The notes beneath the pieces were generated by a model that ran no database searches, was not told where the DNA came from, and saw only the letters and a program-made list of their open reading frames with translations. From Mucilaginibacter sp. (lineage in GTDB: Bacteria; Bacteroidota; Bacteroidia; Sphingobacteriales; Sphingobacteriaceae), in NCBI GenBank assembly GCA_030445275.1, contig JAUCSE010000053.1:1-64000 (forward strand): DNA of 64,000 nucleotides, in the 5' to 3' direction. The position numbers were made by a program, and so were the translations under genes. Of the stretch, positions 38,801 through 59,597 are shown one piece after another. Every line of letters starts with the position of its first letter. Position 1 is the first letter of the stretch.

Positions 38801-38906
38801 AATCTTCGCGGAAGAACCAAGGAAGCAGGAAATGATCACTTATTATCTGTTATATAAATTTCTAAACTCGGAAAAAGGAAGAAATAAAAACAGAAAAGAG
38901 CATTAA
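35889..38906 (+). CDS. lantibiotic dehydratase (LanB-type, with C-terminal thiopeptide-type domain)
   Basis: 'FAPYLLLRMPAKN', 'LKYYNRFCFRPTPFGLFSSVTLAEW', 'FVIPRLTSAYNHS', C-terminal 'WLYLKIYAPRVGTSRLLLRLYPLLRR...QRWFFIRYEDHAPHVRLRMQV'. Met at 35889 preferred over the track start at 35853. Confidence 0.92.
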   Translation: MAYQFAPYLLLRMPAKNIKDYTTDISVIISDPLFRTAILMASPVFYFSLKRAGFIAADLSEKEQLTLLKYYNRFCFRPTPFGLFSSVTLAEWSEEYFPTTNAHPEYRAIVHTDQAYQNAIIQNTDQSALPSITIFEGNPSIYRALREFRFFRTSLDDNLKHREYQLQSIAFSRLLDDLISFCRNGKGRTEIVDYIIKKALCANDEGEAYADFLIDAQLLVNRMRPNITGNDYLIRLQEKLRKAKHTGNLPGTVSDLLKRKHPIQEGYFQGLKENLKMLLPDDMKALVPEELSIILYRDKQHETLGRNIRDKLSNGIDALMALTPAENLPAMAQFVKSYQRYFEGQCIPLLAALDPEIGIGYQQPAAGKDNPLLETLHIPAPPTNENVISWTAGHSCLLENWHRTNEEDLRVIRLSPAELEQLGPKESPLSILGMSVLFREAGDKVFIESAGGINAPALLGRFTIADPKIHAAACSMAEIQEQQNPDLLFAELLHLADPHVDNINRRAHIWHYELPITAASELPVERQLELADLYLTIYNNQVFLYSKKHSKFVIPRLTSAYNHSLNQLPIFRFLADLPYQYSRHNLSFDLRQFFPGLFFYPRVEYLSAILYPATWVLREEQLNLLRTSTAVQEIHIFKKLRQQLRLPKKFSMAEGDRQLVFYADRDADILFFIHCIRQKTEVILQEFLGNGEIRQYNAYLIPRERLLLPPPPTITNHLKAVRSKIKRKYIPGSEWLYLKIYAPRVGTSRLLLRLYPLLRRQYKHGCIQRWFFIRYEDHAPHVRLRMQVNPEAISEILLAFKAKLEDRVQHHVVREYQIDVYNRELERYALAGIDKTEDFFWTSSELVLHFINRVEDSTVHYLFALHSVRAIIETFIPDQDEQLLFSYKSYEEFLPEFKKMQVHVELDKKYRVLQKDIREALIGENNSFYRSSAKAARNFRGSITKLRESVPQEDDRILSYLRSIIHMHLNRIFAEEPRKQEMITYYLLYKFLNSEKGRNKNRKEH

Positions 38907-42729: not shown

Positions 42730-43566
42730 ATGATTTCGAAATTTAGTGATCGATTATACGCTGATCTGAATAAAGATCTGAATGCGCTGGCGCTGGAAGA
42801 GGATTTAATGGTAAAACGGCTGGAAAAATCAATCCATGTCTGCCTTAAATATCTCCGAAAACTGAAAGACTATTGTAAATTGAATGATCCGGCAACCCGG
42901 GAGGAGGAGATCCGGTTTTTCAAGCAGATCAAACCCAAGTTCAAATGCCAGCTTATTTTTTACCAGTCCCTGCTGAACATCGAGATCCGTAAGCCTATAG
43001 GCGACGGCAAGGTGGTTGCGGATTACTATGGTAATGAGATCAATATCCTCAACCATTTTTTCACGAGCAATTTAACCTTCTACCAATATGTGCGTACACA
43101 GGGAGCTTACCTTGATGAATACTACTTTGTCCGGGGCAATTATGATGTACACCTCGATCCGGATCAATGTGTGATCGATTTTGATCCGGCCTTTAGTACG
43201 ACACATGATCATAAACTGGCCCAGGTACTGGCCAGTGTATTATTGGAGGAACACCTGGTACAATCTATTGCCAAGATCAATCAAAAAGAAGCGATCGTGA
43301 AAATCGATGCTGAATTCAAGGACTTTGACTGGAAACAAACGAAAGTCGCCCTGATTGAACTAATCTACAGCTGGCATGCTACAGAAGCATTCGGTAAGAA
43401 AAACCTCAAGAGCATCGTCAAGTTTATTGAAAGAGCCTTTAATATTTCCCTTGGAAACTTTTATGACACTTATGACTGGCTTTGCGGCCGCCCTTGTCCG
43501 ACCTCCTATATCGATGAAATGAAGGAAGCTTTTTTAACGCGGCTTCAGAAAAAACTAAAATATTAA
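42730..43566 (+). CDS. rteC: RteC-domain protein (regulator of conjugative element excision)
   Basis: 'EIRFFKQIKPKFKCQLIFYQSLLNIE', 'YVRTQGAYLDEYYFVRG', C-terminal 'RAFNISLGNFYDTYDWLCGRPCPTSYIDEMKEAFLTRLQKK'. Confidence 0.9.
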   Translation: MISKFSDRLYADLNKDLNALALEEDLMVKRLEKSIHVCLKYLRKLKDYCKLNDPATREEEIRFFKQIKPKFKCQLIFYQSLLNIEIRKPIGDGKVVADYYGNEINILNHFFTSNLTFYQYVRTQGAYLDEYYFVRGNYDVHLDPDQCVIDFDPAFSTTHDHKLAQVLASVLLEEHLVQSIAKINQKEAIVKIDAEFKDFDWKQTKVALIELIYSWHATEAFGKKNLKSIVKFIERAFNISLGNFYDTYDWLCGRPCPTSYIDEMKEAFLTRLQKKLKY

Positions 43567-43572
43567 ACAGGT

Positions 43573-43600
43573 AAAAAGCGGTTCAGGCCGCTTTTTTTTT
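43573..43600 (+). terminator. Rho-independent terminator after rteC
   Basis: AAAAAGCGG TTCAGG CCGCTTTTTTTTTT. Confidence 0.88.
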
Positions 43601-43719
43601 TACAAAATGAAAATAGTTGCAGTCCGAGTCGGATTAACTCGGAGTGTTTAAAAAGGGCGGTTCCTGAATTTTGTGTTGTCGCCGGTGATAATGGAGTCAC
43701 CGGTTAAAACTAAGAATTT

Positions 43720-44286
43720 ATGCTCCACCAAATCTCCTGGCAAGCCTATGTGCTCAGCATTATCCTGCTACTCATTCTGTATTACGGGTATGTAGGTGTA
43801 GTTTTTTACAGGACCGAGATCCTGGCATTCTATTTTCGTATTTCGGGGAGGCAAGCTACCCTCGAAGTAAATGACGATCGCCTTATCCCTGTTCCGGAAT
43901 ATGAGATCATGGGCGCGGCGAAACCGGACGATACACGATCCATCCGGGAAGAAAACATCGAATTCGGCCCCACAGACAATCCCGACGACCTGACTACAGA
44001 AGAACAAGAAGCAATTGTTATTCCAACAGGCACGGACAGCAGGCAAATCAGCCAGTTTTCGGAAATGATCGCTGAGGTCAAAACCCTGATCCGGGTTATC
44101 AATGAATCCGCAGAAACCCGCGAAAACTTCGAAATGCTGTTTAAGCTCATCGTCCAGAAGTACCATGAACTGGGAGGCACTCCCTACCAGCACCAGATCA
44201 ACGAATTCCTGTTGGAAGAAAGCGAAGGTCAGTTCCCTTTTGAGATCACTTCCGCAGAACTGGAAGCCTACTGGAACAATCATTAA
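43720..44286 (+). CDS. membrane-anchored hypothetical protein of conjugation module
   Basis: Single N-terminal TM, acidic cytoplasmic region; immediately upstream of traE. Confidence 0.6.
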   Translation: MLHQISWQAYVLSIILLLILYYGYVGVVFYRTEILAFYFRISGRQATLEVNDDRLIPVPEYEIMGAAKPDDTRSIREENIEFGPTDNPDDLTTEEQEAIVIPTGTDSRQISQFSEMIAEVKTLIRVINESAETRENFEMLFKLIVQKYHELGGTPYQHQINEFLLEESEGQFPFEITSAELEAYWNNH

Positions 44287-44304
44287 CCCCTAAAAATCAG
44301 GACT

Positions 44305-44649
44305 ATGAAAATTCATATTTTGAAAATCGCAAAGGATAAAATAAAAGCCGCGGTTAGATTCCTGGCTGCTTTGGCGACTACCACATTACTGGCTGTTCAA
44401 AAGTTATGGGCCGCAGACGGTAACGCCGGGATCAACGAAGCGACTACCCAAGTCAAAAGTTATTTCGACACCGGTACCAATCTCATGTACGCCATCGGGG
44501 CAATCGTCGGTCTCGTCGGTGCCATTAAAGTATACAAAAAATGGAATGATGGTGAACATGATACCGGTAAGGTTGCCTCCAGCTGGTTTGGAAGCTGCAT
44601 TTTCCTGGTCGTGGTTGCGACCGTACTTAAATCATTTTTTGGAGTTTGA
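44305..44649 (+). CDS. traE: DUF4134 / TraE-family conjugative transposon protein
   Basis: 'INEATTQVKSYFDTGTNLMYAIGAIVGLVGAIKVYKKWNDGEHDTGKVASSWFGSCIFLVV'. Confidence 0.9.
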   Translation: MKIHILKIAKDKIKAAVRFLAALATTTLLAVQKLWAADGNAGINEATTQVKSYFDTGTNLMYAIGAIVGLVGAIKVYKKWNDGEHDTGKVASSWFGSCIFLVVVATVLKSFFGV

Positions 44650-44671
44650 TCAAATCAAAGGAGGATATATA

Positions 44672-44986
44672 ATGGCCATTTATCAGATCAATAAGGGGAT
44701 CAACAAACCGATTGAGTTCAAGGGATTGAAAGCCCAATATATAGGATACCTCGGTGGCGGCCTGGTTGTACTGCTCATCCTATTTGCCGTCATGTATATC
44801 ACCGGTCTGCCGGTGTACCTCTGTGTTACCATCATTGTAGCATTGGGCGGCGGGTTGTTTTACCAGGTCTTTCAGCTGAGTCATAAATATGGTCAATACG
44901 GGCTGATGAAAAAAACAGCTAAACGTTACCTCCCCGGATACCTCAAGTTCAATTCGAGAAAACTTTTTATTCATCTAAAAAAATAA
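44672..44986 (+). CDS. traF: DUF4133 / TraF-family conjugative transposon protein
   Basis: 'YQINKGINKPIEFKGLKAQYIGYLGGGLVVLLILFAVMYITG'; RBS-like AAAGGAGG just upstream of ATG 44672. Confidence 0.9.
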   Translation: MAIYQINKGINKPIEFKGLKAQYIGYLGGGLVVLLILFAVMYITGLPVYLCVTIIVALGGGLFYQVFQLSHKYGQYGLMKKTAKRYLPGYLKFNSRKLFIHLKK

Positions 44987-44989
44987 ATC

Positions 44990-47443
44990 ATGGGTATTTT
45001 CAGTAATGCGGAACGCGTGTTCCCGGTTTATAAGGTCGAGCATGACTGCATGGTATCCGCCTACGGCGACCTCACTATCGCATACCAGGTGATGCTGCCC
45101 GAGATCTTTACCTTGTCCGAAGCCGATTATGAAACCTACCATCATGCCTGGATCAGGGCGATCAAGGTTTTGCCGAAACACAGTATTGTACACAAGCAGG
45201 ACATTTTTATTAAAAATCATTACCGGGGCGCTAAAAACACCGAAAGCACGTTTCTGACGACTGCAGCTGACAAACATTTTAATGGCCGGCCCTTCCTGGA
45301 CCACACCTGTTATATCATGCTGACGAAGAAAGCCGACGACCGAAAACAGGCCAACAGCGCGTTTTCCGGTATCATGCGCAAAAGTATTGTTCCCCGGCAG
45401 ACTACCGATCCCCGGGCATTACCCGAATTTCTGGAAAAAGCCGGACAGTTTGAACGCATACTAAAGGATTGCAGTTTCATCAGCCTTACCCGGCTGAACA
45501 ATGACGAACTCAGCGGTACCCGGGACCGGCCGGGCATTATAGAACAATACTGTTTTTTACTGGATAAAAATGATCGTCCCCTGCTCAAGGATGTGCATCT
45601 GAAGGACGATATCAGGATTGGCGACCAGCATGCACGGTTATTCACCCTTGGCGATGCCGAAGATATGCCCTCGCTATGCGGCAACAGGATCACTTACGAA
45701 AAGTTCAGCACTGATCAGACCAAGTTCCCCATCGGTTTTGCCAGCCAGCTGAATTTACTGCTGGACTGCAACCACATTTATAACCAGTACCTGTTTATTG
45801 AAGATAGCGGAAAGATATTGAAACAACTGGAGGCTAAAAAACTAAGGCTGCAATCCCTGTCCGCTTATAGCCGGGAAAACGCGATCGGCCGGGACGCGAC
45901 CAATGATTTTCTGAACGAGGCAATCAGCCAGCAGCGCCTGCCGGTAAAGGCACATTTTAACGTTCTGGTCTGGACAGATCAGCGGGAAGGCCTGCAGGAC
46001 ATCAAAAACCAGGTAGGTTCCGCCATGGCACAGCTCGGGGCGAGCAGTAAGCTGGAATCTGACGGGGCTGCCCAGATCTGGTGGGCAGGCATTCCCGGCA
46101 ATGCCGCCGACTTTCCGATGAATGACACGCTGGATACCTTCCTGGAACAAGGAACCTGTTTTCTGAACCTGGAAGGCAACTATCGGAGCGACCCGCCATC
46201 GGAAGGCATCCGGTTTTGTGACCGGCTTTCCGGGAAACCGGTATTTCTGGACCTCTTCGACTCGCCCAGAAAAAAAGGGATAACCTCCAATATGGGGATG
46301 TTGGTCTGCGGTACATCCGGTGGCGGGAAAAGTATGACGGTCAATCATATCCTGCGCACGCTTTACGACCAGGGCGCCCACTGTGTTACAGTTGACATCG
46401 GCGGCAGCTATAAGGGTCTTTGTGAATTGGTTGGCGGTTATTATTTCACCTACGAGGAAAACAACCCGATCCGGTTTAATCCCTTTTATATACCCGCAGG
46501 ACAATCACTGGATACCGAAAAGAAGGAAAGCCTTAAAGCGCTGCTCGTGACCTTGTGGAAGCAGGAAAACGAAAGCTTTAATCGCAGTGAATATGTCGCG
46601 CTATCCAACGCCTTGCAGGGCTATTACGAGCACCTGCAAAAAAACACGACTATATTCCCCTGTTTCAATTCCTTTTATGAATACCTGGAAGGCACCTATT
46701 CCCTGATCCTGAAGACACACAAAGTGAAGGATAAAGACTTCGACCTCGATAATTTCCTTTACGTACTCCGCCCCTATTACAAAAGCGGTGAGTTTGATTA
46801 CCTGCTGAACTCAACAGAGAACATCGATCTACTGGAACAGCGTTTCGTGGTGATAGAGCTGGATAATATCAAAGACCACCCTATCCTTTTCCCGGTCGTT
46901 ACCCTGATCGTGATGGAAATGTTCCTGTCTAAAATGCGTAAACTGAAGGGCATCCGCAAGGTATTGACCATTGACGAGGCCTGGAAAGCCATTGCCAATT
47001 CCGGGATGGCAGGATTCATCCAGTATGCCTTCAAGACGATGCGGAAGTTTAACGGGATACCGAATGTCGTGTCCCAGGAACTGGATGACCTGGTCAGTTC
47101 ACCCATCGTCAAAGATGCCATTATCAATAATGCCGCCATTAAGATCCTGATGGATATGCGCGGGTACCTTAATAAGTTCGACAAACTGCAGGCCACGCTC
47201 GGTATGTCTGACAAGGGAAAAACGCAGGTTTTGTCCGTCAATAAGGATAACCGGGATATTTATATAGACCTCGGCGGTCAGGTCATGAAGGTCGTCAAAA
47301 ATGAACTGTGCCCCGAAGAATACTTTGCCTATACCACGGAAGGCAAAGAGCGGGTAAGGGTCCAGGAACTAGCGGCTATTCACGGAGGGATTGAAAAGGG
47401 TATCTCCGCCATGGTCAGGGAACAGCAACAAAAAACAGTATAA
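44990..47443 (+). CDS. traG: TraG-family conjugation ATPase (VirB4-like)
   Basis: Walker A 'CGTSGGGKSMTVNHILRTLY', Walker B region 'KVLTIDEAWKAIAN'. Confidence 0.95.
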   Translation: MGIFSNAERVFPVYKVEHDCMVSAYGDLTIAYQVMLPEIFTLSEADYETYHHAWIRAIKVLPKHSIVHKQDIFIKNHYRGAKNTESTFLTTAADKHFNGRPFLDHTCYIMLTKKADDRKQANSAFSGIMRKSIVPRQTTDPRALPEFLEKAGQFERILKDCSFISLTRLNNDELSGTRDRPGIIEQYCFLLDKNDRPLLKDVHLKDDIRIGDQHARLFTLGDAEDMPSLCGNRITYEKFSTDQTKFPIGFASQLNLLLDCNHIYNQYLFIEDSGKILKQLEAKKLRLQSLSAYSRENAIGRDATNDFLNEAISQQRLPVKAHFNVLVWTDQREGLQDIKNQVGSAMAQLGASSKLESDGAAQIWWAGIPGNAADFPMNDTLDTFLEQGTCFLNLEGNYRSDPPSEGIRFCDRLSGKPVFLDLFDSPRKKGITSNMGMLVCGTSGGGKSMTVNHILRTLYDQGAHCVTVDIGGSYKGLCELVGGYYFTYEENNPIRFNPFYIPAGQSLDTEKKESLKALLVTLWKQENESFNRSEYVALSNALQGYYEHLQKNTTIFPCFNSFYEYLEGTYSLILKTHKVKDKDFDLDNFLYVLRPYYKSGEFDYLLNSTENIDLLEQRFVVIELDNIKDHPILFPVVTLIVMEMFLSKMRKLKGIRKVLTIDEAWKAIANSGMAGFIQYAFKTMRKFNGIPNVVSQELDDLVSSPIVKDAIINNAAIKILMDMRGYLNKFDKLQATLGMSDKGKTQVLSVNKDNRDIYIDLGGQVMKVVKNELCPEEYFAYTTEGKERVRVQELAAIHGGIEKGISAMVREQQQKTV

Positions 47444-47460
47444 ACTAAAATCAACATGTC

Positions 47461-47832
47461 ATGAAAACACTGAAACTTCTTTTACTGATCAGCTGCATGC
47501 TGATCATTGCAGGCTGTAAAAGTGGTACACCATCCACCATATCCGGCATCTATGTGACTTCCTTTAAACAGGAATTCAGCATGGGCAACGATACACTGAT
47601 CATCGAAGCGTATCATTTAAGCAGCGGAACTTATCAGGTGGAAAGAAAGTCAGGCTACCATAGGATAAGGAACGGGCAGCTAATGCCTAAGGAATACAAT
47701 CAACGGAAATGGATGGCCACCTTCGATCAGGACAGGTTCATATTACAGGAAACAGCATATGGCAAGCAAATCTATTTCAAGCCTGATCTGAAGAGTTTGT
47801 CCTTCGGCTGGACCTATCACAAAATAAACTAA
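47461..47832 (+). CDS. small lipoprotein of conjugation module
   Basis: Lipobox 'MLIIAGCKSG', 123 aa between traG and traI-like genes. Confidence 0.65.
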   Translation: MKTLKLLLLISCMLIIAGCKSGTPSTISGIYVTSFKQEFSMGNDTLIIEAYHLSSGTYQVERKSGYHRIRNGQLMPKEYNQRKWMATFDQDRFILQETAYGKQIYFKPDLKSLSFGWTYHKIN

Positions 47833-47847
47833 GTAAACCCATAAACA

Positions 47848-48579
47848 ATGAAAATTTACTCCCGTCAATCCGGCGGGGGAAGGGAGGTATTTATGAAAAT
47901 TTTCAAGATAACATTACCGGTAAGCCTGGCATTCGTGCTGATTTCCATCTCCGCTGAAAGAGCGCATGCACAGGTGGTCATTACCGATGTGATCAAAGCG
48001 GCAGCCACGAAGGTCATCAAAGCGATAGACCTGAAAGTCCAACGGATGCAGAACAAGACCATCTGGCTGCAGAACGCCCAAAAGGCCCTGGAAAACCAGC
48101 TCTCCAAACTCCGGCTTGACGAAATCACCGGGTGGACCGATCAGCAAAGGCAATTATACAGCAATTATTACAATGAGCTCTGGCAGATCAAATCCGTGAT
48201 CTCTTATTACGAACGGATCAAAGACATGACGGTGAAACAGGTGGCGATGGTCAGGGAGTACCGGCAAGCCTGGAGCGTGCTCAGGCGGGATGCACATTTC
48301 AGTCCTTCAGAGCTCATTTACATGGAGCAGGTCTACGCAGGTATGCTGGATGCCAGCCTGAAAAACCTTGATCAGATCATGCTGGCCGTTAACGGCTACA
48401 AAACTCAGATGACCGATGAGCAGCGGCTGGAGCTGATCAATCATGCGGGTGACCGGCTCGACGAAAATTACGATGACCTCCGGCGGTTCAACAACCAGAA
48501 CATCATGCTGAGCCTGCACCGGAGTAAGGACCTTAACGATACGCAAACCATCCAATTACTATATGGAAACCATGAATGA
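47848..48579 (+). CDS. TraI-like conjugative transposon protein
   Basis: Exported, helical 'KVIKAIDLKVQRMQNKTIWLQNAQKALENQLSKLRLDEITGWTDQQRQLYSNYYNELWQIK'. Confidence 0.75.
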   Translation: MKIYSRQSGGGREVFMKIFKITLPVSLAFVLISISAERAHAQVVITDVIKAAATKVIKAIDLKVQRMQNKTIWLQNAQKALENQLSKLRLDEITGWTDQQRQLYSNYYNELWQIKSVISYYERIKDMTVKQVAMVREYRQAWSVLRRDAHFSPSELIYMEQVYAGMLDASLKNLDQIMLAVNGYKTQMTDEQRLELINHAGDRLDENYDDLRRFNNQNIMLSLHRSKDLNDTQTIQLLYGNHE

Positions 48580-49255
48580 AATCAAAAAAAACGCCGGTAT
48601 ACTCAGAATGCGTGCCGGCGGCCTGCTCGTCTATACCCTGTTTACGGCAATTGCTTCGGGTATGGCAGCAAAGGCGGAGGCACAAACCTTCGCGGAATGG
48701 TTCAAACAGAAGAGCACCCAGAAAAAATACCTGTTGCAGCAGATCGCAGCCCTACAGGTATATGGCGGATATCTGAAAAAGGGTTACGAGATCGCCGGTC
48801 ATGGCTTCGGGTCTATTTCCGGGTATCTCCGTTCGGAAAACGGGCTGCATTCGGGCTATTATCAAAAGTTGGAAACAGCGAGTCCACTGGTTAGAAACAA
48901 TCCTCAGGTCAAAGAAATTTTAGCATGGCAGGCCGATATTATTAACCGGCTTAGCGCCATGGATGCTATTTCCGGTCTTTCGAAGGATGAAAAGAATTAT
49001 CTCGCCGATGTCAGGAACGCCGTCTTAAAAGACTGTGACGGGCAGATCAGCCAATTGCAAAATGTATTGACAGACGGCCAACTGGAAATGAACGATTCGG
49101 AACGGTTGGGGCTAATCGCCACCATTCACCGGGCTATGCAGGAAAATCTCCGTTTTGCTTCGGCTTTCACCGAACAGGTCAAGATCTACGCATTACAACG
49201 CCGGAAGGAGTACAAGGACATCGCTGCCGGCAAGGCGCTTTATACCATTCATTAA
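48563..49255 (+). CDS. TerB/TraI-like exported helical protein of conjugation module
   Basis: 'QKKYLLQQIAALQVYGGYLKKGYEIAGHGFGSISGYL', overlaps the previous gene by 17 bp. Confidence 0.7.
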   Translation: METMNEIKKNAGILRMRAGGLLVYTLFTAIASGMAAKAEAQTFAEWFKQKSTQKKYLLQQIAALQVYGGYLKKGYEIAGHGFGSISGYLRSENGLHSGYYQKLETASPLVRNNPQVKEILAWQADIINRLSAMDAISGLSKDEKNYLADVRNAVLKDCDGQISQLQNVLTDGQLEMNDSERLGLIATIHRAMQENLRFASAFTEQVKIYALQRRKEYKDIAAGKALYTIH

Positions 49256-49265
49256 ACCAAGAGTC

Positions 49266-49913
49266 ATGAGAAATTTATTAAGATTGCTCGTTAGCTTCCT
49301 ATTGCCAACAGCGTTGTGCTATAATCCCGGGCGTGCCGGTGCACAGCGCCAGGAACTGCAACAACTAATCCTGGATATTGAAAAGCTTACCCAATTCAAA
49401 AGCATCCTGTCTGACATGAAGACAGGCTACCAGATCTACGCGCAAGGATATGGAACCATTTCCAATTTGTCCAAAGGAAACTTTGACCTGCACCATATTT
49501 ACCTGGGCAGTTTAATGGCCATCAACCCTTCCATCAGGAATTATGGAAGGATCGCTGAGATCATTTCTATGCAGGCCAGCCTGGTGAGTGAATATCGAAA
49601 CGCCAGTTCCCGGTTCCGGCAAAGCGGTAGTTTCAACATTTCGGAGCTCAGCTATATGGCTGACGTTTACGCCAGGTTATTGAAGGAGAGCCTGGATGAT
49701 CTGCTGGAACTCACTAATATCATCACCGCGAATAAACTGCGGATGTCCGATACCGAACGGATCAAAGCCATTGACCGGCTCTACGCAACAAGCTCGGATA
49801 AGCTGCAGTTCCTGCGTTCCTTTAACAGGCAGGGTGTTTTGCTTTCTATCCAGAGAACAAAGGATGCCGCTGACAACAGGACGATGAAGCAACTCTATGG
49901 TCTAACCAACTAA
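49266..49913 (+). CDS. TerB/TraI-like exported helical protein of conjugation module
   Basis: 'QELQQLILDIEKLTQFKSILSDMKTGYQIYAQGYGTISNLSKGNFDLHHIYLGSL'; Met at 49266 preferred over the track start at 49155. Confidence 0.75.
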   Translation: MRNLLRLLVSFLLPTALCYNPGRAGAQRQELQQLILDIEKLTQFKSILSDMKTGYQIYAQGYGTISNLSKGNFDLHHIYLGSLMAINPSIRNYGRIAEIISMQASLVSEYRNASSRFRQSGSFNISELSYMADVYARLLKESLDDLLELTNIITANKLRMSDTERIKAIDRLYATSSDKLQFLRSFNRQGVLLSIQRTKDAADNRTMKQLYGLTN

Positions 49914-49923
49914 TTCGTCACGT

Positions 49924-51129
49924 ATGAAAAAGAAATTATTATTAACCGCTTTGCTAGCGGTATCGGGAGTGGTTTTTCCTTTATTTTCCCATGCGGAAGG
50001 ACTGGCCAATGATATCCATGGTTTACAAAATACACTTGACGGCGTTTACGATGACATGCTGCCGATGTGTGGGCAACTCATCGGTATCGGTCGTGCCATC
50101 GCGGGTTTTGGTGCATTATTATTTATCAGTTTCCGGGTCTGGAGGCAGATCGCGAATGCGGAACCCATCGACTTTTATCCCTTGATGAGGCCCTTCGCCC
50201 TGGGCATGGCCCTGATTATTTTCCCGGGTGTTATTGCCATTATCAACGGCATCATGCAGCCTACAGTGACCGCGACCGGCGGCATGGTTCAAAACTCGGA
50301 TGCCGCGATCGCCAGATTGCTGGCGGCAAAGGAAGCCGCTATAAAGCAAACGGATACCTGGCAAATGTATGAGGGTGAAGGAGGAGACGGAGATCGGGCG
50401 GCGTGGTACAAATACACCCATCCAAAAGATCCCGCTGGAACCGATGAAGGCATATTCGAAAGTGTCGGCAATGACATGAAGTTCGCTATGGCCAAAGCAT
50501 CCTATAACTTTCGCAATACGGTCAAACAATGGATGTCGGAAGTACTGCAGGTAGTATACGAAGCAGCAGCTTTATGCATCAATACCATCCGGACCTTCTA
50601 CCTCATTGTGCTCGCTATTCTTGGCCCTATTGTATTTGGATTGGCGGTCTTCGACGGTTTCCAACACACCCTATCCGTGTGGCTCGCTAAATACATCAAT
50701 GTCTTCTTATGGCTGCCGGTCGCCAACATTTTCGGCGCGATCATTGGCAAGGTCCAGGAAAATATGCTCAAGCTGGATATTTCCCAGGTTCAGAACGCCG
50801 GTGACACCTTTTTCAGCTCGACTGATACCGCTTACCTGATCTTCCTGATTATCGGCATTATCGGTTATTTCACCGTTCCCGGAATAGCGGGTTATATCGT
50901 CCATGCCGGTGGAGGCAATGGCCTGTTACAAAAAGTTAACACCTTAGTCAGCCACTCCTCTGGTGCCGCTATGACCGGTGGGTCCATGGCGGGGAAACAG
51001 ATGGCGAACGGCGCCATCAACCTTGCTACCGCGCCGGGGGACTTCATCCAAGGTTACCAAAGTGCGGGCAAGTCAAACCAGGCAGATAGCTATCAGGCGA
51101 ACAGGTTATCCGGAGATAAGGAGATTTAG
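49924..51129 (+). CDS. traJ: TraJ-family conjugative transposon membrane protein
   Basis: Signal, multiple TMs, 'HGLQNTLDGVYDDMLPMCGQLIGIGRAIAGFGALLFISFRVWRQIANAEPIDFYPLMRPFALGMALIIFPGVI'. Confidence 0.93.
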   Translation: MKKKLLLTALLAVSGVVFPLFSHAEGLANDIHGLQNTLDGVYDDMLPMCGQLIGIGRAIAGFGALLFISFRVWRQIANAEPIDFYPLMRPFALGMALIIFPGVIAIINGIMQPTVTATGGMVQNSDAAIARLLAAKEAAIKQTDTWQMYEGEGGDGDRAAWYKYTHPKDPAGTDEGIFESVGNDMKFAMAKASYNFRNTVKQWMSEVLQVVYEAAALCINTIRTFYLIVLAILGPIVFGLAVFDGFQHTLSVWLAKYINVFLWLPVANIFGAIIGKVQENMLKLDISQVQNAGDTFFSSTDTAYLIFLIIGIIGYFTVPGIAGYIVHAGGGNGLLQKVNTLVSHSSGAAMTGGSMAGKQMANGAINLATAPGDFIQGYQSAGKSNQADSYQANRLSGDKEI

Positions 51130-51150
51130 TAACCCTTAAAATCAATCATC

Positions 51151-51768
51151 ATGTTTACACACCTCAAAAATATCGATACTGCTTTCAGGCATATGAAAAC
51201 GTTCAATATTATCCTGATCGCGGCCAATATTTTCACGACCTGTTTTATTGTTTACACCAACGGCAAAACAGTTGATAAGGCGCAGAACACGGTACATATC
51301 CTCTATAACGGAAAAGTGCTGGAGGCGATCGCTTCGGACCGGAAAAGCAACCTTCCCGTGGAACTCCGGGATCATATTAAAACCTTTCACGAGGACTTTT
51401 TCAACTTAAGCCCCGATGATAAAGCCATACAGGCCAATGTGTCGAAAGCACTTTACCTGGCCGATGAATCAGCCAAGCACCAGTATGACAATTTGCGGGA
51501 GTCCGGATATTACAATAACCTGATCTCCGCGAATATTTCGCAGCAGGTCAAAGTGGATAGTACACGGCTCGAAGGTAAGCAGTTTCCCTATACGTTCACC
51601 TGCTATGCTACAGAGAAACTGATCCGGTCCAGCAGCACGGTCATCCGTAAGCTCATTACCCAGGGTGAGGTCAGGGACATCAGGCAACAGACCGATAATA
51701 ACCCCCATGGTTTTCTGATCCAGCACTGGCAGGTACTGGTTAATCGGGATACTACCATTCAAAACTAA
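51151..51768 (+). CDS. traK: TraK-family conjugative transposon protein
   Basis: 'FTHLKNIDTAFRHMKTFNIILIAANIFTTCFIVY...QHWQVLVNRDTTIQN'. Confidence 0.9.
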   Translation: MFTHLKNIDTAFRHMKTFNIILIAANIFTTCFIVYTNGKTVDKAQNTVHILYNGKVLEAIASDRKSNLPVELRDHIKTFHEDFFNLSPDDKAIQANVSKALYLADESAKHQYDNLRESGYYNNLISANISQQVKVDSTRLEGKQFPYTFTCYATEKLIRSSSTVIRKLITQGEVRDIRQQTDNNPHGFLIQHWQVLVNRDTTIQN

Positions 51769-51772
51769 TCCG

Positions 51773-52111
51773 ATGAGCATATTTAAAAATCAAATCAAAT
51801 CCCAGGAACCGGAGGATGACCGCGTCGCCAAAATCATTGCCGGGCAAATCATCAGGTGGCAGGCACAGGCAAGCCATCGGTTGAACCGCTGGATCAATGG
51901 CTATTCCCGCAAAAAGCAGCGAATTATTTTGATGCTGTCTGGTATCCTGACAGCCGGTGCACTGATCACCAGTCTGACGCCATATGCAGGACAGGTACCG
52001 CTGCATACCAAGGGCAATTATATACCGCAGCACATTGGTGAACCCTCGGAAAGGATAAGACTTAAAGACCCTACCAATAAAACAACAGATTCAATAACCA
52101 ATAAAAAATAA
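51773..52111 (+). CDS. TraL-position small membrane protein
   Basis: One TM, position between traK and traM. Confidence 0.55.
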   Translation: MSIFKNQIKSQEPEDDRVAKIIAGQIIRWQAQASHRLNRWINGYSRKKQRIILMLSGILTAGALITSLTPYAGQVPLHTKGNYIPQHIGEPSERIRLKDPTNKTTDSITNKK

Positions 52112-52115
52112 TCTT

Positions 52116-53267
52116 ATGGAAAAGCAAGCGACAAGTGGCACCAGGCCACAGCATACCATTGAATTTCTGCGGAAGCGCAAATTCTTCCTGGTATTACCCC
52201 TGCTCATCCTGCCTTTTATCACCATGGCATTTCTGGCGCTGGGCGGCGGCAAGACCGGCAAACCTTCCACCGCAGCATCCTTGAATAAAGGAATCGATAT
52301 GGCCCTGCCATCGGCCCATTTTAAGGATGATCAAACCAAAGACAAAATGGACATTTACAAGGCTGCCGGTAGAGATTCCTCCTCATCCCGGACAGGTATT
52401 AGTCAAAGTTTTATACAAAGCATGGGGTTTGAAGCCAGAGCAGGCAGCCATGGCGATTCAGCGGTGATCAACAAAATCATTTCCCCGACTCCATCAAACG
52501 CCGAACAGCAATCTACGAAGATCGAAGCCAGGCTGGCTCAAATCAACCGCCAGCTCACCCAGCCGCAGCCGGCCCTTCCCAACGCACCTTATGCCGAAGA
52601 CCACACTGAAGGGCAAAAAAATGCGGATAAGATCAGGAAAATGATGAACGATATGAGCCCGGACAGCACCCCGGACCCCGAACTGCAGCAATTGAGTAAG
52701 ATGATGGAACAGCTGCAGGCCATACAAAACCCACCGGCAGTCAAGACATTGCCTATGAAAGCAGAGGCCAAAGCTGATACCACGCCTTTTAAGGCCATAC
52801 CGGCCGTCATTGACGGCAAGCAAAGAGTGGTGGACGGCGGCGAGGTCAGGTTAAAGCTCGCGGATAGCGTTACTCTGAAAACGATGCTGCTACCCAGGGG
52901 ACAACTCCTTTACGGAGCTTGCCAGGTCACCAACCAGCGGTTGATGCTCTCCATTAAAAATATCAGACAAGGGACGCATATCATCCCAGTCGACCTGACG
53001 GTATTCAGCCTGGATGGCTTACCCGGTATCCCCGCCCACGAGGCAGAATTAGCAGGTACAGCCTCAGGCGGAGCCGATAATACCTTATCGGGCATGCAGT
53101 TCCTGTCGATGGATCAGTCTTTGGGAGCGCAGGCCGCAGCCGGAGGAATTCAGGCTGCCAAAGGACTGTTCAGCAGGAAAATGAAAAAGATCAGAGTAAA
53201 ACTGGAAGATAAATTCCCCGTATTGTTACGGGACAACAGCAAAAGGACACCTGTAAACATCCAATAA
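52116..53267 (+). CDS. traM: TraM-family conjugative transposon protein
   Basis: N-terminal TM after 'FLRKRKFFLVLPLLILPFITMAFLALGGGK'; C-terminal 'LPRGQLLYGACQVTNQRLMLSIKNIRQGTHIIPVDLTVFSLDGLPGIPA'. Confidence 0.92.
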   Translation: MEKQATSGTRPQHTIEFLRKRKFFLVLPLLILPFITMAFLALGGGKTGKPSTAASLNKGIDMALPSAHFKDDQTKDKMDIYKAAGRDSSSSRTGISQSFIQSMGFEARAGSHGDSAVINKIISPTPSNAEQQSTKIEARLAQINRQLTQPQPALPNAPYAEDHTEGQKNADKIRKMMNDMSPDSTPDPELQQLSKMMEQLQAIQNPPAVKTLPMKAEAKADTTPFKAIPAVIDGKQRVVDGGEVRLKLADSVTLKTMLLPRGQLLYGACQVTNQRLMLSIKNIRQGTHIIPVDLTVFSLDGLPGIPAHEAELAGTASGGADNTLSGMQFLSMDQSLGAQAAAGGIQAAKGLFSRKMKKIRVKLEDKFPVLLRDNSKRTPVNIQ

Positions 53268-53286
53268 CAAAATCATCAAAGGCCAT

Positions 53287-54501
53287 ATGGAACTCGCTGA
53301 AAACTATGATATACTGAAACGTCATTTTGAAGACCTGAATTTTAAAGATCCTGGCATAGCGGATGAACTCCGGGGAGGACTTACAGCTGTTCCTAACCAT
53401 TTTACGGTAGGTTTTAGCGAGGATTATACCCAATCGAATTTTTGGGCAAGGTTTGAAGTCGCCTGGACAGACAACCAAAATGGGTTTGTCGTCACAGCAT
53501 ATGAAGCAGCTATCCGGCACTGTGATCAGCCGATTTATGATTTTTCCTGCTACTTTTCCCCCGATGTATGCAAGGACGATGCCTGCCAGGTACTTGCGAA
53601 AAAGTATTTGTTTCCGCCGGATAACCATGGTTTCCGTAGTTCCTATCATAGCAACAAAGACATCCCCTCCTTTCTTGCGGCTGACAACCCGCAACAAATC
53701 AATTATTTCCATCAATTAAATCATATCAACATGAATCAAAACGTAGAATTTCTTAAAAACAGCCTGCTGAACCTGGGGTTCGGTGACAAGCTGAATGCAG
53801 ACCTGGAAAAACAGATCACTGCTAAAACACCAGAATTTAACCTGGCGGCCCAACATGAATTTAATCAGCATAAAATTGATTATACTCTTCATTTCAAAGC
53901 GGGCAATAACCAGGAAATGTACTTCCTGAATAAGTTCGATGCCAGCCTGAAGAATGGAAATGAAGATACCAAACAGAGCTTTTATATCAATAAAGGGAAC
54001 GGTGTGACCGCCAAAGAAGCCTTTAATTTAATGGACAAGTCAGACGGCCTGGACGGAAGAGCCGTTTTCAAACAACTTTACAATACAGAAGGTGAAAAAT
54101 ACCATAGCTGGGTGAAGCTGGACTGGAAAGACCTGACAGAGGGTGGCAATGCCCGATTAAAGCAACATAGCTTTGATGTAGAAAAATTCCTTGACGGCAA
54201 AGGCGTTAAAGAAATGAATGATCCAAAATCCAGAGAAGATCTGATGCGGTCATTAAAGAAAGGCAACAAACAGCAGATCACCGTTGACAAGGACGGCAAG
54301 GAGCAGAAATACTTCATTGCCGCAAACCCGCAGTACAAAACCATGAACCTCTTTGATCACCAGATGAAGAAAATAAAACGGGAGGAGCTGTTCCCGCCGT
54401 TACAGAAGCAAGACAACAGTGAAAAACAAACACAAAACAAGCAGCAAAAGGAGGAGCTGCCTGGAAAAAAGCAGTCGAGAAAAAATGGCGTTAAAGTTTA
54501 A
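53287..54501 (+). CDS. conjugative-element-associated hypothetical protein
   Basis: 404 aa; second half from MNQNVEFLKNSLLNLGFGDKLNADLEKQI resembles a common Bacteroidota ICE accessory protein; N-terminal ~148 aa looks like a separate domain. Confidence 0.6.
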   Translation: MELAENYDILKRHFEDLNFKDPGIADELRGGLTAVPNHFTVGFSEDYTQSNFWARFEVAWTDNQNGFVVTAYEAAIRHCDQPIYDFSCYFSPDVCKDDACQVLAKKYLFPPDNHGFRSSYHSNKDIPSFLAADNPQQINYFHQLNHINMNQNVEFLKNSLLNLGFGDKLNADLEKQITAKTPEFNLAAQHEFNQHKIDYTLHFKAGNNQEMYFLNKFDASLKNGNEDTKQSFYINKGNGVTAKEAFNLMDKSDGLDGRAVFKQLYNTEGEKYHSWVKLDWKDLTEGGNARLKQHSFDVEKFLDGKGVKEMNDPKSREDLMRSLKKGNKQQITVDKDGKEQKYFIAANPQYKTMNLFDHQMKKIKREELFPPLQKQDNSEKQTQNKQQKEELPGKKQSRKNGVKV

Positions 54502-54684: not shown

Positions 54685-55518
54685 TTAAGGTTTATATTTT
54701 ACCCTTATATTATAAAAATGAACCCAATCATCTTTCAGGGTGGCAGGATCTTTTTTCTTAGCAAGGTCTTTGGGATCTTTACCAATATTGAAAAATATAT
54801 CGACTTTGTTCCCGTTTACAGCGTAATACAATACTTTAAAATCGCCTTGTAAGGTAACACCCTCCGTGAAATCAGCATCATGCCAGTGACCGTTAATGCC
54901 TAACTGAAAGTTTTTTTGACGATGAAATTTTAAGGGGAAGGAAAATGTTGTGTCAGGTCTCGCGATTTCGAAGTGTTGTAATTCTACCGGAATATTGTCT
55001 GTTATCGTGTTGACCAGCAGGATAGATTGATCAGTATTGAATTGATAGGTCCAAGTATCAATCACTTGCTGGTCTTTGCGCATGAATTCAAATGTTCGTT
55101 GAGTCTCATTATATTTGCCGATATAGAATAGGTTTAAAAACCAAATATTAACATAGTTACTGTTATTAAACACAGGTTCATCATATATCCAGCGATGATC
55201 TTTATCTCCCGTAAAAAATGGAGGGATGGTGGTTAAGTATAGTACTCGCTTACTTTTTTGGGAAAAAAGCAGGTATTCTACTTCGATTTTTTCCTTACCG
55301 TCTCCAGCTATTTCCTCGTAGTTATCACGTTGTACAATGTAATCACTTTTGGATTTACCTACTTGTCGGATATAAAGCTGGTAACTGGTATCGAGTTCGA
55401 TCTTTTGGGGCTTATAATTTTCCACATCCCCTTCCCAGTGCGTATAAGTATAAAACCTTCTTATGCCGCAACCTGTTATTAAGAGTAGCCAAGAAACAAG
55501 TATCAGAGTCCTTTTCAT
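54685..55518 (-). CDS. lipoprotein of unknown function
   Basis: Signal and lipobox 'LLLITGCGIRR'; 4-bp overlap with the upstream gene. Confidence 0.65.
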   Translation of the reverse strand: MKRTLILVSWLLLITGCGIRRFYTYTHWEGDVENYKPQKIELDTSYQLYIRQVGKSKSDYIVQRDNYEEIAGDGKEKIEVEYLLFSQKSKRVLYLTTIPPFFTGDKDHRWIYDEPVFNNSNYVNIWFLNLFYIGKYNETQRTFEFMRKDQQVIDTWTYQFNTDQSILLVNTITDNIPVELQHFEIARPDTTFSFPLKFHRQKNFQLGINGHWHDADFTEGVTLQGDFKVLYYAVNGNKVDIFFNIGKDPKDLAKKKDPATLKDDWVHFYNIRVKYKP

Positions 55519-56522
55519 TTCAAATTAATTTGTTGGCGTGTTATACTGTAGTCTGCACTAATGGAATAACTTGCCGGGTAAGGCATTTGGTGGTATGCAT
55601 CATAGATGACATAGTGAATCAAGCTTTGAAAGTCATTCGAATAGTCGTTTTCCCTTTTTAATGTAAATCCAAATCCCTTGTTCGTATTAGCCAGATGCAG
55701 ACTATAGCAGCCTTTATTGTAATACTGCTGTGTGATATCACTATAATTGACAAATGATAATCCAATCAGATTGGAAAGGTTAAAGGCATTTTCCGTAAAG
55801 CCGGAAAACTTATGGAATCCAAGTTCAATAAGATTCATATAATTATTAGTAGGGTTCAAGTGGTAGCTTAATAAGCCACCACCCGTATAATAACGATCAT
55901 ACCGATCACCGGTCCCGATACTTTTGATCAAAGCACCACCATCGTTATAATAACTAAACTGGAAGCGTCCCTGGTGGAAATTAATAAAACCGATACGCTG
56001 ACTTTTCTTTTTTTTATCTGTCGTAAATACCAGGTTGGTTCCAGCGGAAATAGAGAAATGGTAGGGATTGACTAAAGCCGGGTAAACAAAATCCGCGAAG
56101 TAATAAAGCGGAATTTTATTGGCTGATAACAAATCCGCACGTCTCGGGGTCAATCTATAATCACTTCCGGCAGTGAAAGTGAATGCGTTAATAAAATCCA
56201 GAGTTGTTCGATGTCGCAATTTACCATACGCACTGGAGCCCAAACCTCCGTTGTAAAGCTGCACCTCCAGATTATAGCTTGGTGAAACCGTTTGGGCTAT
56301 CGTGTACATCAAACCTCCGTTCAAACCAAATCGGTAAACGGGAGGGGCATAACGGTGTTCCTTTAATTCAAAACTAACTGTTAGTTTCGCTGATACCCCA
56401 AACTGAATAGGGACTTGGCTTGTATTCGTATTATAATGAACCTGTGCTCCGGCCGTTATTACAAACAACACGGCGATGATGACCAAGTAAAGTTTTTGAT
56501 GATGGTTAGGCATAGGGATCAA
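55515..56522 (-). CDS. exported, probably outer-membrane beta-barrel-like protein of unknown function
   Basis: Signal peptide and alternating aromatic/polar strands (FGLNGGLMYTIAQTVSPSYNLEVQLYNGGLGSS). Confidence 0.6.
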   Translation of the reverse strand: MIPMPNHHQKLYLVIIAVLFVITAGAQVHYNTNTSQVPIQFGVSAKLTVSFELKEHRYAPPVYRFGLNGGLMYTIAQTVSPSYNLEVQLYNGGLGSSAYGKLRHRTTLDFINAFTFTAGSDYRLTPRRADLLSANKIPLYYFADFVYPALVNPYHFSISAGTNLVFTTDKKKKSQRIGFINFHQGRFQFSYYNDGGALIKSIGTGDRYDRYYTGGGLLSYHLNPTNNYMNLIELGFHKFSGFTENAFNLSNLIGLSFVNYSDITQQYYNKGCYSLHLANTNKGFGFTLKRENDYSNDFQSLIHYVIYDAYHQMPYPASYSISADYSITRQQINLK

Positions 56523-56531
56523 TTGGTTTAA

Positions 56532-57314
56532 CTAATGCGTATCCAGGACATATGCCCAACTCAGGGCAGCACAAAACTTAACCAGCGGGACGCTAAAGAC
56601 ACAATCTTCGCTGAAATTATTTTTCACCCGCAGGTTTTTTGTTGAAGTATCGTAGCCCACAATCGTTACAATGTGGTTCGAGGAGGGTGCAGTATTCCAA
56701 TTGCCAGGGTTAATAAAACGTTCATCACAATAGCCTCTTCTTTCCTTGATTGCACAAATGACCGGGTGACCGGTGGCTATTTCCCGCTGTACGCGCGCCA
56801 AAACGGTATCGATTTTCTTATAATCGACTGGTGTTATAATCTCCCTGACTTTATTGATACGAATATCCGGCGGCAGTTGCATTAATCCAGTGTCAAAATG
56901 TGCATTAATGATCGCTTCCTTTGTATAAGGGAATCGTGAAAAAAAGTAAGCTCCGTAAGTTTGCAGGACGTACAGGACATTATCCAGATTGCCATAATCG
57001 TTGATGTTACCGCCGTACGTTTGCCATGCTATCTTTTTAACGGAATCAGCCCCAAGATGGTAAATAATACCATCCGCGTAGCCAAAGGAAAATGCATGAC
57101 TCGAATCCGCACTTATGTGATGCTGATAAGCATATTGCGTGCTTAAAGCGACGTAAACAGCAGCATAAGCATAACAATTTGCTCCGTCCTGCACGGTTAT
57201 CTTCGGCGTACTGGCCTCCAGGGTAAATATTGCCGGGTATTGTTGTGCATATGCTGGGATAAAACAGGTCAGCAACAAGATCAAGGTACCCAGGCCTTTT
57301 TTTAAAGTTTTCAT
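56532..57314 (-). CDS. secreted papain-like (C1 fold) cysteine protease-like protein
   Basis: Signal peptide; 'QDGANCYAYAAVYVAL' (Cys), 'SNHIVTIVGYDTSTKNLRVKNNFSED' (His...Asn) in papain-like order. Confidence 0.75.
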   Translation of the reverse strand: MKTLKKGLGTLILLLTCFIPAYAQQYPAIFTLEASTPKITVQDGANCYAYAAVYVALSTQYAYQHHISADSSHAFSFGYADGIIYHLGADSVKKIAWQTYGGNINDYGNLDNVLYVLQTYGAYFFSRFPYTKEAIINAHFDTGLMQLPPDIRINKVREIITPVDYKKIDTVLARVQREIATGHPVICAIKERRGYCDERFINPGNWNTAPSSNHIVTIVGYDTSTKNLRVKNNFSEDCVFSVPLVKFCAALSWAYVLDTH

Positions 57315-57327
57315 TTGACCCTCCAGT

Positions 57328-59124
57328 TTATTTTTTTGCCAGTGCGGCTATATAATCAATTATGGGAATATCGATCCCAAAATTGACAAAGGTATTTTCC
57401 CCTTTAAAGCGTTTATCTGTGTAGGGACATGCGAGCCCAACATTGAGCGAAAGCCCGTTAAAAAAAGTAATTCCCAGCCCGGCACCCGCAATCGCGTAAT
57501 TGAATTTGTCTTCAGATTTGAGGTTAACAAGATTATACAGTAAACCAGATCCATAAAACATAATATAAACATCACTGATGGTAGGCTGCTGCTGTGGTCG
57601 TAGCCAACTTCTTGGATAAGTGCCGGGTTTGTTGTAATAATTAAAATTTTCACCGGGTTGGAATGAATGAGTGTAACGCCAATTCCAAAATTTGTATTTG
57701 ATCCCGATTTTTTCGCTGGCATAATATAGATTGCCAAGGGATTTGGGGTTACCGTTATTGTCTGTCGCTAAACTGTTTTTGTTTAGAAAACTGGCCTGAT
57801 TAGTACCCAGTGAAAAAAACACCGAGACGTATACTGCCTTTTTATCTGATGGTGCAAAATGCTGTTCTATAGCCGATACTAAAGCATCGATATCAATATA
57901 AATGTACCCTTTGTCGTTTATGGTTGCCGTTTTTTCCGGGATTGGGTTATTGGTACTGTTGCTATTATATTCCACGATTGTATTTTCAATCAAAAAATCA
58001 AGTACCGAACCCACAACATCGTTTTTAAATTGGTGCCTTACCAGTTTTAGGAAATCAAGCGTTATCGCTTTTAAAGCGTAGTATTGATCCTGCGTAAGGG
58101 TAAAATCCTTGAAATCTGATTTTTGAAGCTGGGTATAAAACGTATAAAGTGGTTTGTACTGATCGTAATTGTCTTTAATAGTATTATAGGCAGAATTCAA
58201 TGTAAACTTTTGGTCCGCCGGAATGCTGCCGTCAAATTTGCTGATCAACTCATTGATTTTCGCCTGCAGGTCACTGGCTGAAAGGTCACCGTAAGTGCTT
58301 AATAAAGTCGTGGTAGCTGTAGCGAGGTTGTGGTCCGGGGAATTAGATAATGTTTTTAAGGCTTGGAGCAACTGCCCCGCTTGTTTAATCTTTGCTGTAA
58401 ATTGCTGTAAAAGAAATTGGATACTGGTTTTTTCAGCGTCAAATTTAGGTTGGCCTGCGGGTCCGGCTTTATTTCGTTCCACCAGATATACATTATCTGC
58501 ATCATACCAGGTTTTGAATGTAGGATCATCCAGATCAGCACTAAAGGTAAAGCCAGGGTGGAGATTATCATCATGAACAACGATATCATAGCAAAGATCG
58601 ATCATCAAATTGAAATTTTTAATATCGGGAGGAATAGTCACATTGGATTGACGATCATTCTGATTTACTCTTACCTTGGCAGCTTCGATGAAATTTGGCC
58701 CGATGCTGAATTTATCATCCAACGCCACGAGCACCTTGTTAGCCTTATAATTTTGCTGGACATACATCACCATCCCGTAGATGTAAGCAAATTCTGAGGC
58801 ATCCTGAATAATTTTCTTGGTAATAACTGTTTTATTTTTACCACTGGTCATAATATCCATTAGGTGATAAATAAAACTATACGTAGTATAATTCTTCAAA
58901 TGGTCCAAATAGCTGTGATCATTGAATTCTTTAATAATCGTGTTCCTGAACACATGTTGCTTGACTTCTTCTTGTTTTTGCTGAATGACTTGCGTTAGAA
59001 CTTCCATATCGATTGTCCCCTTATTGATCATAGGACTGTTACCGACAAGACTAATTGTAGGCCCTTGTGCGGATGCGCTACCAATACAGGTAACAAACAT
59101 CCCAAGGAGCAGGAGTTTTTTCAT
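57328..59124 (-). CDS. large exported protein of unknown function with barrel-like C-terminus
   Basis: Signal peptide (LLLGMFVTCIGSASAQ), 598 aa, helical N-terminal half, C-terminal strands 'YAIAGAGLGITFFNGLSLNVGLACPY...TFVNFGIDIPIIDYIAALAKK'. Confidence 0.6.
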   Translation of the reverse strand: MKKLLLLGMFVTCIGSASAQGPTISLVGNSPMINKGTIDMEVLTQVIQQKQEEVKQHVFRNTIIKEFNDHSYLDHLKNYTTYSFIYHLMDIMTSGKNKTVITKKIIQDASEFAYIYGMVMYVQQNYKANKVLVALDDKFSIGPNFIEAAKVRVNQNDRQSNVTIPPDIKNFNLMIDLCYDIVVHDDNLHPGFTFSADLDDPTFKTWYDADNVYLVERNKAGPAGQPKFDAEKTSIQFLLQQFTAKIKQAGQLLQALKTLSNSPDHNLATATTTLLSTYGDLSASDLQAKINELISKFDGSIPADQKFTLNSAYNTIKDNYDQYKPLYTFYTQLQKSDFKDFTLTQDQYYALKAITLDFLKLVRHQFKNDVVGSVLDFLIENTIVEYNSNSTNNPIPEKTATINDKGYIYIDIDALVSAIEQHFAPSDKKAVYVSVFFSLGTNQASFLNKNSLATDNNGNPKSLGNLYYASEKIGIKYKFWNWRYTHSFQPGENFNYYNKPGTYPRSWLRPQQQPTISDVYIMFYGSGLLYNLVNLKSEDKFNYAIAGAGLGITFFNGLSLNVGLACPYTDKRFKGENTFVNFGIDIPIIDYIAALAKK

Positions 59125-59597
59125 GATAAGGAATTTTAAGGTCCATGAATGTAAGATATATTCATGGTATAAAAAAGGATATCTGAGAAAATATTTTCGC
59201 TAAGTATTTACTTATCAAATACTTAATACCTGAATCAATAACCGGTAGCTTCCATGTGTAAACTCAACCTTAATAACAGAGGGCAGATAAGCTATTTCTC
59301 ACACTTCCCATTAATGTATTTCTTCCTTTTGATTCCATTTTATAATGGAGGCGGACAATATAGAACCATTGATTGGTATATTCCAGGAACGAAACCAAAT
59401 TTTGATATACTTATAAATCAATACGACAGGCATCCTTGTCTGCTATTGTGATAAGGTAAAAGTCCTAGCGGCGAATGTTTAGAGTACCTTGTTTTTGATA
59501 TCCGTCGATTATTGCAATTGTATCTAAGTAATTTCCTTATTTTAATTTTCTGAAATAAGATAAATTGTACATTTGCGCCTTTAAAAAAATAACGACA

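What the first reader, a model, noticed from the sequence alone, without database searches (positions are those of the whole stretch)
54685..59124. Four-gene operon of exported proteins built around a secreted papain-like protease
Four minus-strand genes (598, 260, 335, 277 aa) are packed with 13-bp and 9-bp gaps and a 4-bp overlap. All four start with signal peptides: large barrel-tailed protein, papain-like protease (Cys in GANCYAYAA, His in SNHIVTIVGYD, Asn in VKNNF), barrel-like protein, lipoprotein. I recognise a family only for the protease. The set lies next to the abrupt end of a tra operon, so it may be mobile cargo: a cell-surface proteolytic or export complex, or an antagonism/immunity system. 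The function is inference.
Basis: partly seen in the sequence, partly recalled or inferred. Interest (0 to 1): 0.8.

Follow-up and report, generated by a model that had tools for sequence, protein, structure and literature searches.

The report
Exported toxin-immunity-like pair, protease, barrel protein
A soil-type bacterium (Mucilaginibacter) carries a four-gene set of exported proteins whose last two genes look like a cell-envelope toxin with its protective lipoprotein, and whose first gene belongs to an undescribed family often found beside phage-defence (restriction) genes.

Summary
The four genes are real, and the order P1-P2-P3-P4 is repeated in one other Mucilaginibacter genome (72/72/72/48% identity) with unrelated flanks. 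It is therefore an inherited unit, but a rare one. Elsewhere it splits.

P3-P4 is an ancient pair. P3 is a divergent, stand-alone, Sec-exported member of the Ntox23 polymorphic-toxin family. In all 21 Ntox23-type loci compared, including Rhs C-termini and a T6SS cargo gene behind two TssD genes, the next gene is a lipoprotein. P4 evolves about 2.4 times faster than its operon mates.

P3 and Ntox23 share with the lipid A deacylase LpxR the ordered residues ND..DRxYT..QxxxH. This suggests a lipid esterase, but the AlphaFold model of P3 failed, so the fold is unproven.

P2 is a papain/C39-like protease with an intact Gln-Cys-His-Asn set. P1 belongs to an unnamed Bacteroidota family (helical stalk plus small C-terminal barrel). 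It lies within about 5 kb of restriction-modification genes in 9 of 22 other loci, against roughly 1% expected.

Best reading: an envelope-acting effector/immunity pair joined to a protease and a defence-island-associated exported protein. The rival is self outer-membrane remodelling. Function is inferred throughout.

The parts
57328..59124 (-). P1, 598 aa exported protein: helical N-terminal/middle region plus C-terminal 6-strand barrel-like domain; member of an unnamed Bacteroidota family
   Evidence: ORF; no Pfam/NCBIfam/PADLOC/PHROG family; 23 related loci; AF2 pLDDT 72
56532..57314 (-). P2, 260 aa secreted papain/C39-like cysteine protease, Q42-C47-H214-N232 intact
   Evidence: PF13529 28.4 bits vs cut-off 24; invariant residues; relatives include a PF00112 papain protease
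55515..56522 (-). P3, 335 aa (332 from the ATG) exported, stand-alone, divergent Ntox23-family protein, predicted barrel/lipid esterase
   Evidence: PF15528 25.6 bits vs cut-off 26.2, 26.4 in whole-frame search; invariant N193 D194 D209 R210 T213 Q299 H303 H311
55614..55946 (-). LpxR-like signature segment of P3: ND(193-194)...DRYYT(209-213)...QSLIH(299-303)
   Evidence: hhalign full-vs-full prob 55, core 77; motif census; 3FID alignment
54685..55518 (-). P4, 277 aa lipoprotein, putative immunity/partner of P3 (4-bp overlap)
   Evidence: lipobox; same pairing in 21 Ntox23-type loci; dN 0.49 vs 0.20-0.22 for P1-P3
59143..59167 (-). Perfect 8-bp inverted repeat CCATGAAT-N9-ATTCATGG 18 nt upstream of the P1 start: possible operator
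   Evidence: read directly from the sequence; not found upstream of the L046 copy; untested

Best explanation
The cassette is an envelope-targeted conflict module. P3 is an Ntox23-family effector that carries its own Sec signal and probably attacks an acyl ester of outer-membrane lipid with an LpxR-type Asn-Asp/Thr/His site. P4 is its surface or periplasmic lipoprotein immunity partner. P2 is a secreted papain-type protease that either matures P3/P1 or is a second effector. P1 is an exported helical protein with a small C-terminal barrel that anchors or presents the set at the outer membrane. Shown here: gene content, conservation as a unit in two genomes, the universal Ntox23-lipoprotein pairing, the shared LpxR-type motif, an intact protease site, and P1's association with restriction-modification genes. 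Inferred: toxicity, lipid-esterase activity, immunity, P2's substrate and P1's role.
For: P3 matches PF15528, whose members here are C-termini of Rhs proteins (L031, L069) and a T6SS cargo gene directly behind two TssD genes (L072). In all 21 Ntox23-type loci examined the next gene is a lipoprotein, mostly overlapping. These lipoproteins fall into several families, while the toxin domain stays recognisable. P4 diverges about 2.4 times faster than P1-P3 (dN 0.49 vs 0.20-0.22). P3 and LpxR share ND..DRxYT..QxxxH in order with similar spacing: T to H is 90 residues in P3 and 88 in 3FID numbering (LpxR D10, T34, H122 from PMC6260217). The four-gene order recurs with different flanks in L044/L046.
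Against: P3 has its own Sec signal, so it would reach the producer's own envelope, which is unusual for a contact-delivered toxin. In one genus (L030, L032-L035) the P3-P4 pair is syntenic and looks vertically inherited, like a housekeeping gene. P3's Ntox23 score alone is 0.6 bits under the curated cut-off. LpxR itself gives no Pfam match to P3, and block-shuffled LpxR profiles that keep motif pieces reach the observed score in 2 of 120 and 5 of 80 runs. The AF2 model of P3 is useless (pLDDT 30). Fast divergence is also common in lipoproteins generally.
Confidence: 0.45

Rival explanations
1. Resident outer-membrane remodelling system: P3 is an LpxR/PagL-like enzyme acting on the cell's own lipid A, P4 is its lipoprotein partner or regulator, and P1/P2 are assembly or quality-control factors. 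No antagonism is involved.
For: Signal-peptide-like N-termini on the stand-alone P3 homologues; syntenic, vertically inherited pair in five loci of one genus; LpxR-type catalytic signature.
Against: The family also occurs as Rhs C-termini and as a T6SS cargo gene, always with a lipoprotein; scattered distribution (13 of 251 order genomes; 8 of 297 phylum genomes by PF15528); P4 is the fastest-evolving gene; a true LpxR is already present in 48 of 61 family genomes, including this one.
Confidence: 0.3
2. Anti-phage surface module: P1 belongs to a defence-island family, and the operon changes or guards the cell surface (lipid editing by P3, proteolysis by P2) against phage adsorption or DNA entry.
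For: 9 of 22 other P1-family loci lie within about 5 kb of restriction-modification genes, against about 1% expected from N6_Mtase density; 0 of 13 P3-only loci share these genes; the L046 copy has GmrSD-like genes nearby; a PADLOC candidate defence helicase (PDC-S37) lies about 15 kb from the operon here.
Against: Most P1 relatives lack P2-P4; 13 of 22 P1 loci have no obvious restriction genes in the stretch held; no phage data.
Confidence: 0.15
3. Chance neighbours: P3-P4 (toxin-immunity) inserted beside an unrelated P1 and protease in a Mucilaginibacter ancestor, kept only by common descent or transfer of the segment.
For: Only two genomes have all four; P1 and P3-P4 have separate distributions. 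P1 is frameshifted in the second genome, by decay or assembly error.
Against: Same order and tight spacing in two genomes with unrelated flanks at about 72% identity, i.e. kept together over much divergence and at least one relocation.
Confidence: 0.1

Closest known systems
Ntox23 / Bacterial toxin 23 (PF15528; Zhang et al. 2012, PMC3482391)
   Same: All-beta domain with conserved ND, D/R and H; Bacteroidota; adjacent partner gene
   Different: P3 is stand-alone with its own signal peptide and about 170 extra N-terminal residues; borderline score; R directly follows D (DRYYT) rather than DxxR
LpxR lipid A 3'-O-deacylase (PF09982, PDB 3FID)
   Same: Ordered ND..DRxYT..QxxxH with similar T-to-H spacing; similar length; outer-membrane barrel expected
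   Different: No Pfam match; in LpxR the ND is at the N-terminus, in P3 it is mid-protein, as if the barrel were circularly permuted; fold not confirmed
T6SS lipase effectors with periplasmic/lipoprotein immunity (Tle-Tli; recalled, not tested)
   Same: Lipid-directed effector encoded directly upstream of an envelope-located immunity protein
   Different: No sequence relation tested; P3 carries a Sec signal and has no visible delivery system beside it
Papain C1 / C39-like proteases (PF00112, PF13529)
   Same: Gln-Cys-His-Asn set, secreted
   Different: Short (260 aa), no prodomain or extra domain; only one close homologue found
Known defence systems in PADLOC
   Same: P1 relatives lie beside type I, IIG/ISP and III restriction genes
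   Different: P1-P4 match no PADLOC model

Membership tests
Ntox23 (PF15528) | Score above curated cut-off | tested here: inconclusive
   25.6 bits vs 26.2; 26.4 with neighbours in the frame
Ntox23 (PF15528) | Conserved ND, DxxR, H of the published description | tested here: met
   N193-D194, D209/R210, H303/H311 invariant in 13 sequences; R position differs from DxxR; description from PMC3482391
Ntox23 (PF15528) | C-terminal module of a polymorphic (Rhs) toxin | tested here: not met
   P3 is stand-alone; relatives L031 and L069 are Rhs C-termini
Ntox23 (PF15528) | Immunity gene directly downstream | tested here: met
   lipoprotein gene with 4-bp overlap; 21 of 21 loci; immunity activity itself not testable
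LpxR (PF09982) | Pfam model match | tested here: not met
   no match at E<=10
LpxR (PF09982) | Catalytic ND / T / H set in order | tested here: met
   residues from PMC6260217
LpxR (PF09982) | 12-strand outer-membrane barrel fold | tested here: inconclusive
   AF2 pLDDT 30 with only 2 sequences allowed
Papain-like / Peptidase_C39_2 (PF13529) | Score above cut-off | tested here: met
   28.4 vs 24 bits
Papain-like / Peptidase_C39_2 (PF13529) | Gln, Cys, His, Asn catalytic residues | tested here: met
   Q42, C47, H214, N232 invariant
Known anti-phage defence system (PADLOC) | Match to any PADLOC model | tested here: not met
   none for P1-P4 at E<=10
CTnDOT-type conjugative element cargo | Operon lies inside element boundaries | tested here: inconclusive
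   tra genes to TraM at 53267, no TraN family in the genome but the control was silent; ends not mapped

The most novel reading that the evidence does not exclude
P1 is the founder of an undescribed family of exported, barrel-tailed proteins that works with restriction-modification islands at the cell envelope. In Mucilaginibacter it has been joined to a surface lipid-editing enzyme pair (P3-P4, a circularly permuted LpxR) and a protease, giving a defence or antagonism system that acts at the outer membrane rather than on DNA.
Probability: 0.12. Interest if true: 0.82.

Novelty: new variant of a known kind. Interest (0 to 1): 0.52.

Why it matters
If right, Ntox23 toxins, which a 2026 survey lists as 'predicted RNAse' effectors (PMC13288982), are envelope lipid enzymes. 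The lipoprotein nature of every partner and the LpxR-type residues both point that way, and one lipid assay would decide it. Separately, an exported protein family that repeatedly sits beside restriction-modification genes would be an unexpected envelope component of defence islands and gives a concrete gene to test.

Tried and rejected
P1 structure searches against PDB and viral models gave no match at E<=0.001. P3 relatives in viral contigs: none. P1 and P2 on plasmids: none. Profile search of P3 and P1 families against PDB sequences: nothing significant; P2 by sequence: none. A 'complex built around the protease' was rejected because P2 is the least conserved part of the set. Literature searches for LpxR-like interbacterial toxins found nothing relevant. 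dN/dS could not be computed because synonymous sites are saturated.

Full report
Observation. The four ORFs are present exactly as stated. P3 (55515-56522) is called from a TTG; an ATG nine bases on is an equally good start. A perfect inverted repeat, CCATGAAT-N9-ATTCATGG, lies 18 nt before the P1 start. It is not present in front of the second copy, so it is only noted.

Host and context. The window lies on a 216-kb contig of a 7.1-Mb genome. Genome G391 of the same genus carries the operon on a 34,069-base contig and corresponds to the Mucilaginibacter sp. RYN_330 MAG record. To the left of the operon lie RteC, a TraE-like DUF4133 protein, TraG, TraJ and TraM, a CTnDOT-type module that stops after TraM. 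The TraN family (DUF4138) was not found in the genome, but the control was silent. Membership in a mobile element is therefore possible, not shown.

Conservation. P2 was searched in 401 genomes of the order. Apart from the window it had one close relative (74%, G391) and one weak one. In G391 all four genes follow in the same order: aligned identities are 72% (P1 residues 174-598), 72% (P2), 72% (P3) and 48% (P4), and the flanking genes are unrelated. P1 in that genome is broken by a frameshift in its N-terminal part, which may be decay or an assembly error. P3 was searched in 251 order genomes and found in 13; two further genomes of the genus have P3-P4 without P1-P2 (L024, L025). P1 alone is widespread but sparse: 23 loci across Bacteroidota, only one with P2-P4. 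The four-gene set is thus a rare composite of two older units (P1; P3-P4) and a protease.

P3-P4. P3 matches Ntox23 (PF15528) at the cut-off (25.6 vs 26.2 bits; 26.4 in the frame-wide search). Ntox23 was described as all-beta with ND, DxxR and H (PMC3482391). P3 and twelve stand-alone homologues keep N193, D194, D209, R210, T213, Q299, H303 and H311. Across the phylum, Ntox23 occurs at the C-terminus of Rhs proteins (L031 and L069 confirmed by Pfam; L070, L071 and L073 look the same) and as a T6SS cargo gene behind two TssD genes (L072). In all 21 loci tabulated, the next gene downstream is a lipoprotein, usually overlapping; five of these loci are syntenic within one genus, so they are not independent. 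The lipoproteins fall into several families: P4 is related to one other set at 84% probability, and the Rhs and T6SS partners form separate groups. P4 has dN 0.49 against 0.20-0.22 for P1-P3. This is the pattern of an effector and its envelope-located immunity protein, although activity is not shown.

What P3 may do. Profile-profile alignment of the full Ntox23 set with the full LpxR set (one LpxR gene in most family genomes) places P3 191-312 on LpxR 3-122 at 55% probability, and core against core gives 77%. Column-shuffled and reversed profiles never reach this (0 of 60 and 0 of 1). Block shuffles that keep motif pieces reach it in 2 of 120 and 5 of 80 runs, so the shared motif carries most of the signal. 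The pattern ND..DR..T..QxxxH was found in 17 LpxR and 30 Ntox23-type ORFs (the latter with duplicates) and in no other of 729 ORFs; shuffled ORFs gave 1 of 11,660. The pattern was written after seeing both families, so this census shows specificity, not independence. The Bacteroidota LpxR set aligns to the solved enzyme 3FID (E 2.9e-12), with T34 and H122 in register. LpxR is proposed to use D10 for a cation and H122 to activate water (PMC6260217). Because the ND is mid-protein in P3 and N-terminal in LpxR, a circular permutation is suggested.

P2. It has an intact Gln-Cys-His-Asn set and a C39-like Pfam match above cut-off. Its remote relatives include an ordinary papain-family protease. Its substrate is unknown.

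P1. No library recognises it or any of its relatives with confidence. The AF2 model (pLDDT 72, pTM 0.62) shows a long helical region and a C-terminal six-strand barrel-like domain followed by a helix. No PDB or viral match is significant. Of the 22 loci other than L046, nine carry restriction-modification genes within about 5 kb: type IIG/ISP at L047, L048, L050, L053 and L063; type I at L049, L055 and L062; and a type III-like gene (weak PADLOC match) with an N6/N4 methylase at L064. L066 has AbiL-like genes, and L046 has GmrSD-like genes. N6_Mtase genes number roughly 2-3 per genome in this phylum, so about 1% of random loci should have one that close. This is my rough estimate, and the Winogradskyella loci are not fully independent. 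None of the 13 P3-only loci share these restriction genes.

Verdict. This is a genuine, rare, exported four-gene unit. Its P3-P4 half is best read as an Ntox23-type effector/immunity pair of the envelope, possibly an LpxR-like lipid esterase. The P1 half belongs to a new family with a restriction-island association. The combined function is inference.

Noticed in passing
L047, L048, L049, L050, L053, L055, L062, L063, L064: P1-family genes repeatedly lie beside restriction-modification genes of different types, suggesting an exported defence-island family.
   Followed up: partly
L072:608-2999: T6SS cassette TssD-TssD-Ntox23-lipoprotein; this Ntox23 lacks a visible signal peptide, unlike P3.
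   Followed up: partly
window 42730-54501: CTnDOT-type tra module (RteC, DUF4133, TraG, TraJ, TraM) that ends after TraM, followed by a 404-aa unknown ORF; looks truncated.
   Followed up: partly
window 35853-38906: Lantibiotic dehydratase (LanB-like) N- and C-terminal domains in one 1017-aa ORF downstream of a SusC/SusD-like pair.
   Followed up: no
L041:14236-18828 (about 15 kb right of the operon, contig 74236-78828): 1530-aa helicase matching PADLOC candidate PDC-S37 and Hhe, a putative phage-defence gene.
   Followed up: no
L046:10001-11748: P1 of the second four-gene operon is frameshifted in its N-terminal part (decay or assembly error).
   Followed up: partly
window 59143-59167: Perfect 8-bp inverted repeat with 9-bp spacer just upstream of P1, possible operator.
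   Followed up: no
L039/L059:1555-6230: P1 relative in a three-gene run with a membrane protein and a 425-aa 'YNVHTHIF' hydrolase-like protein in Pedobacter glucosidilyticus.
   Followed up: no
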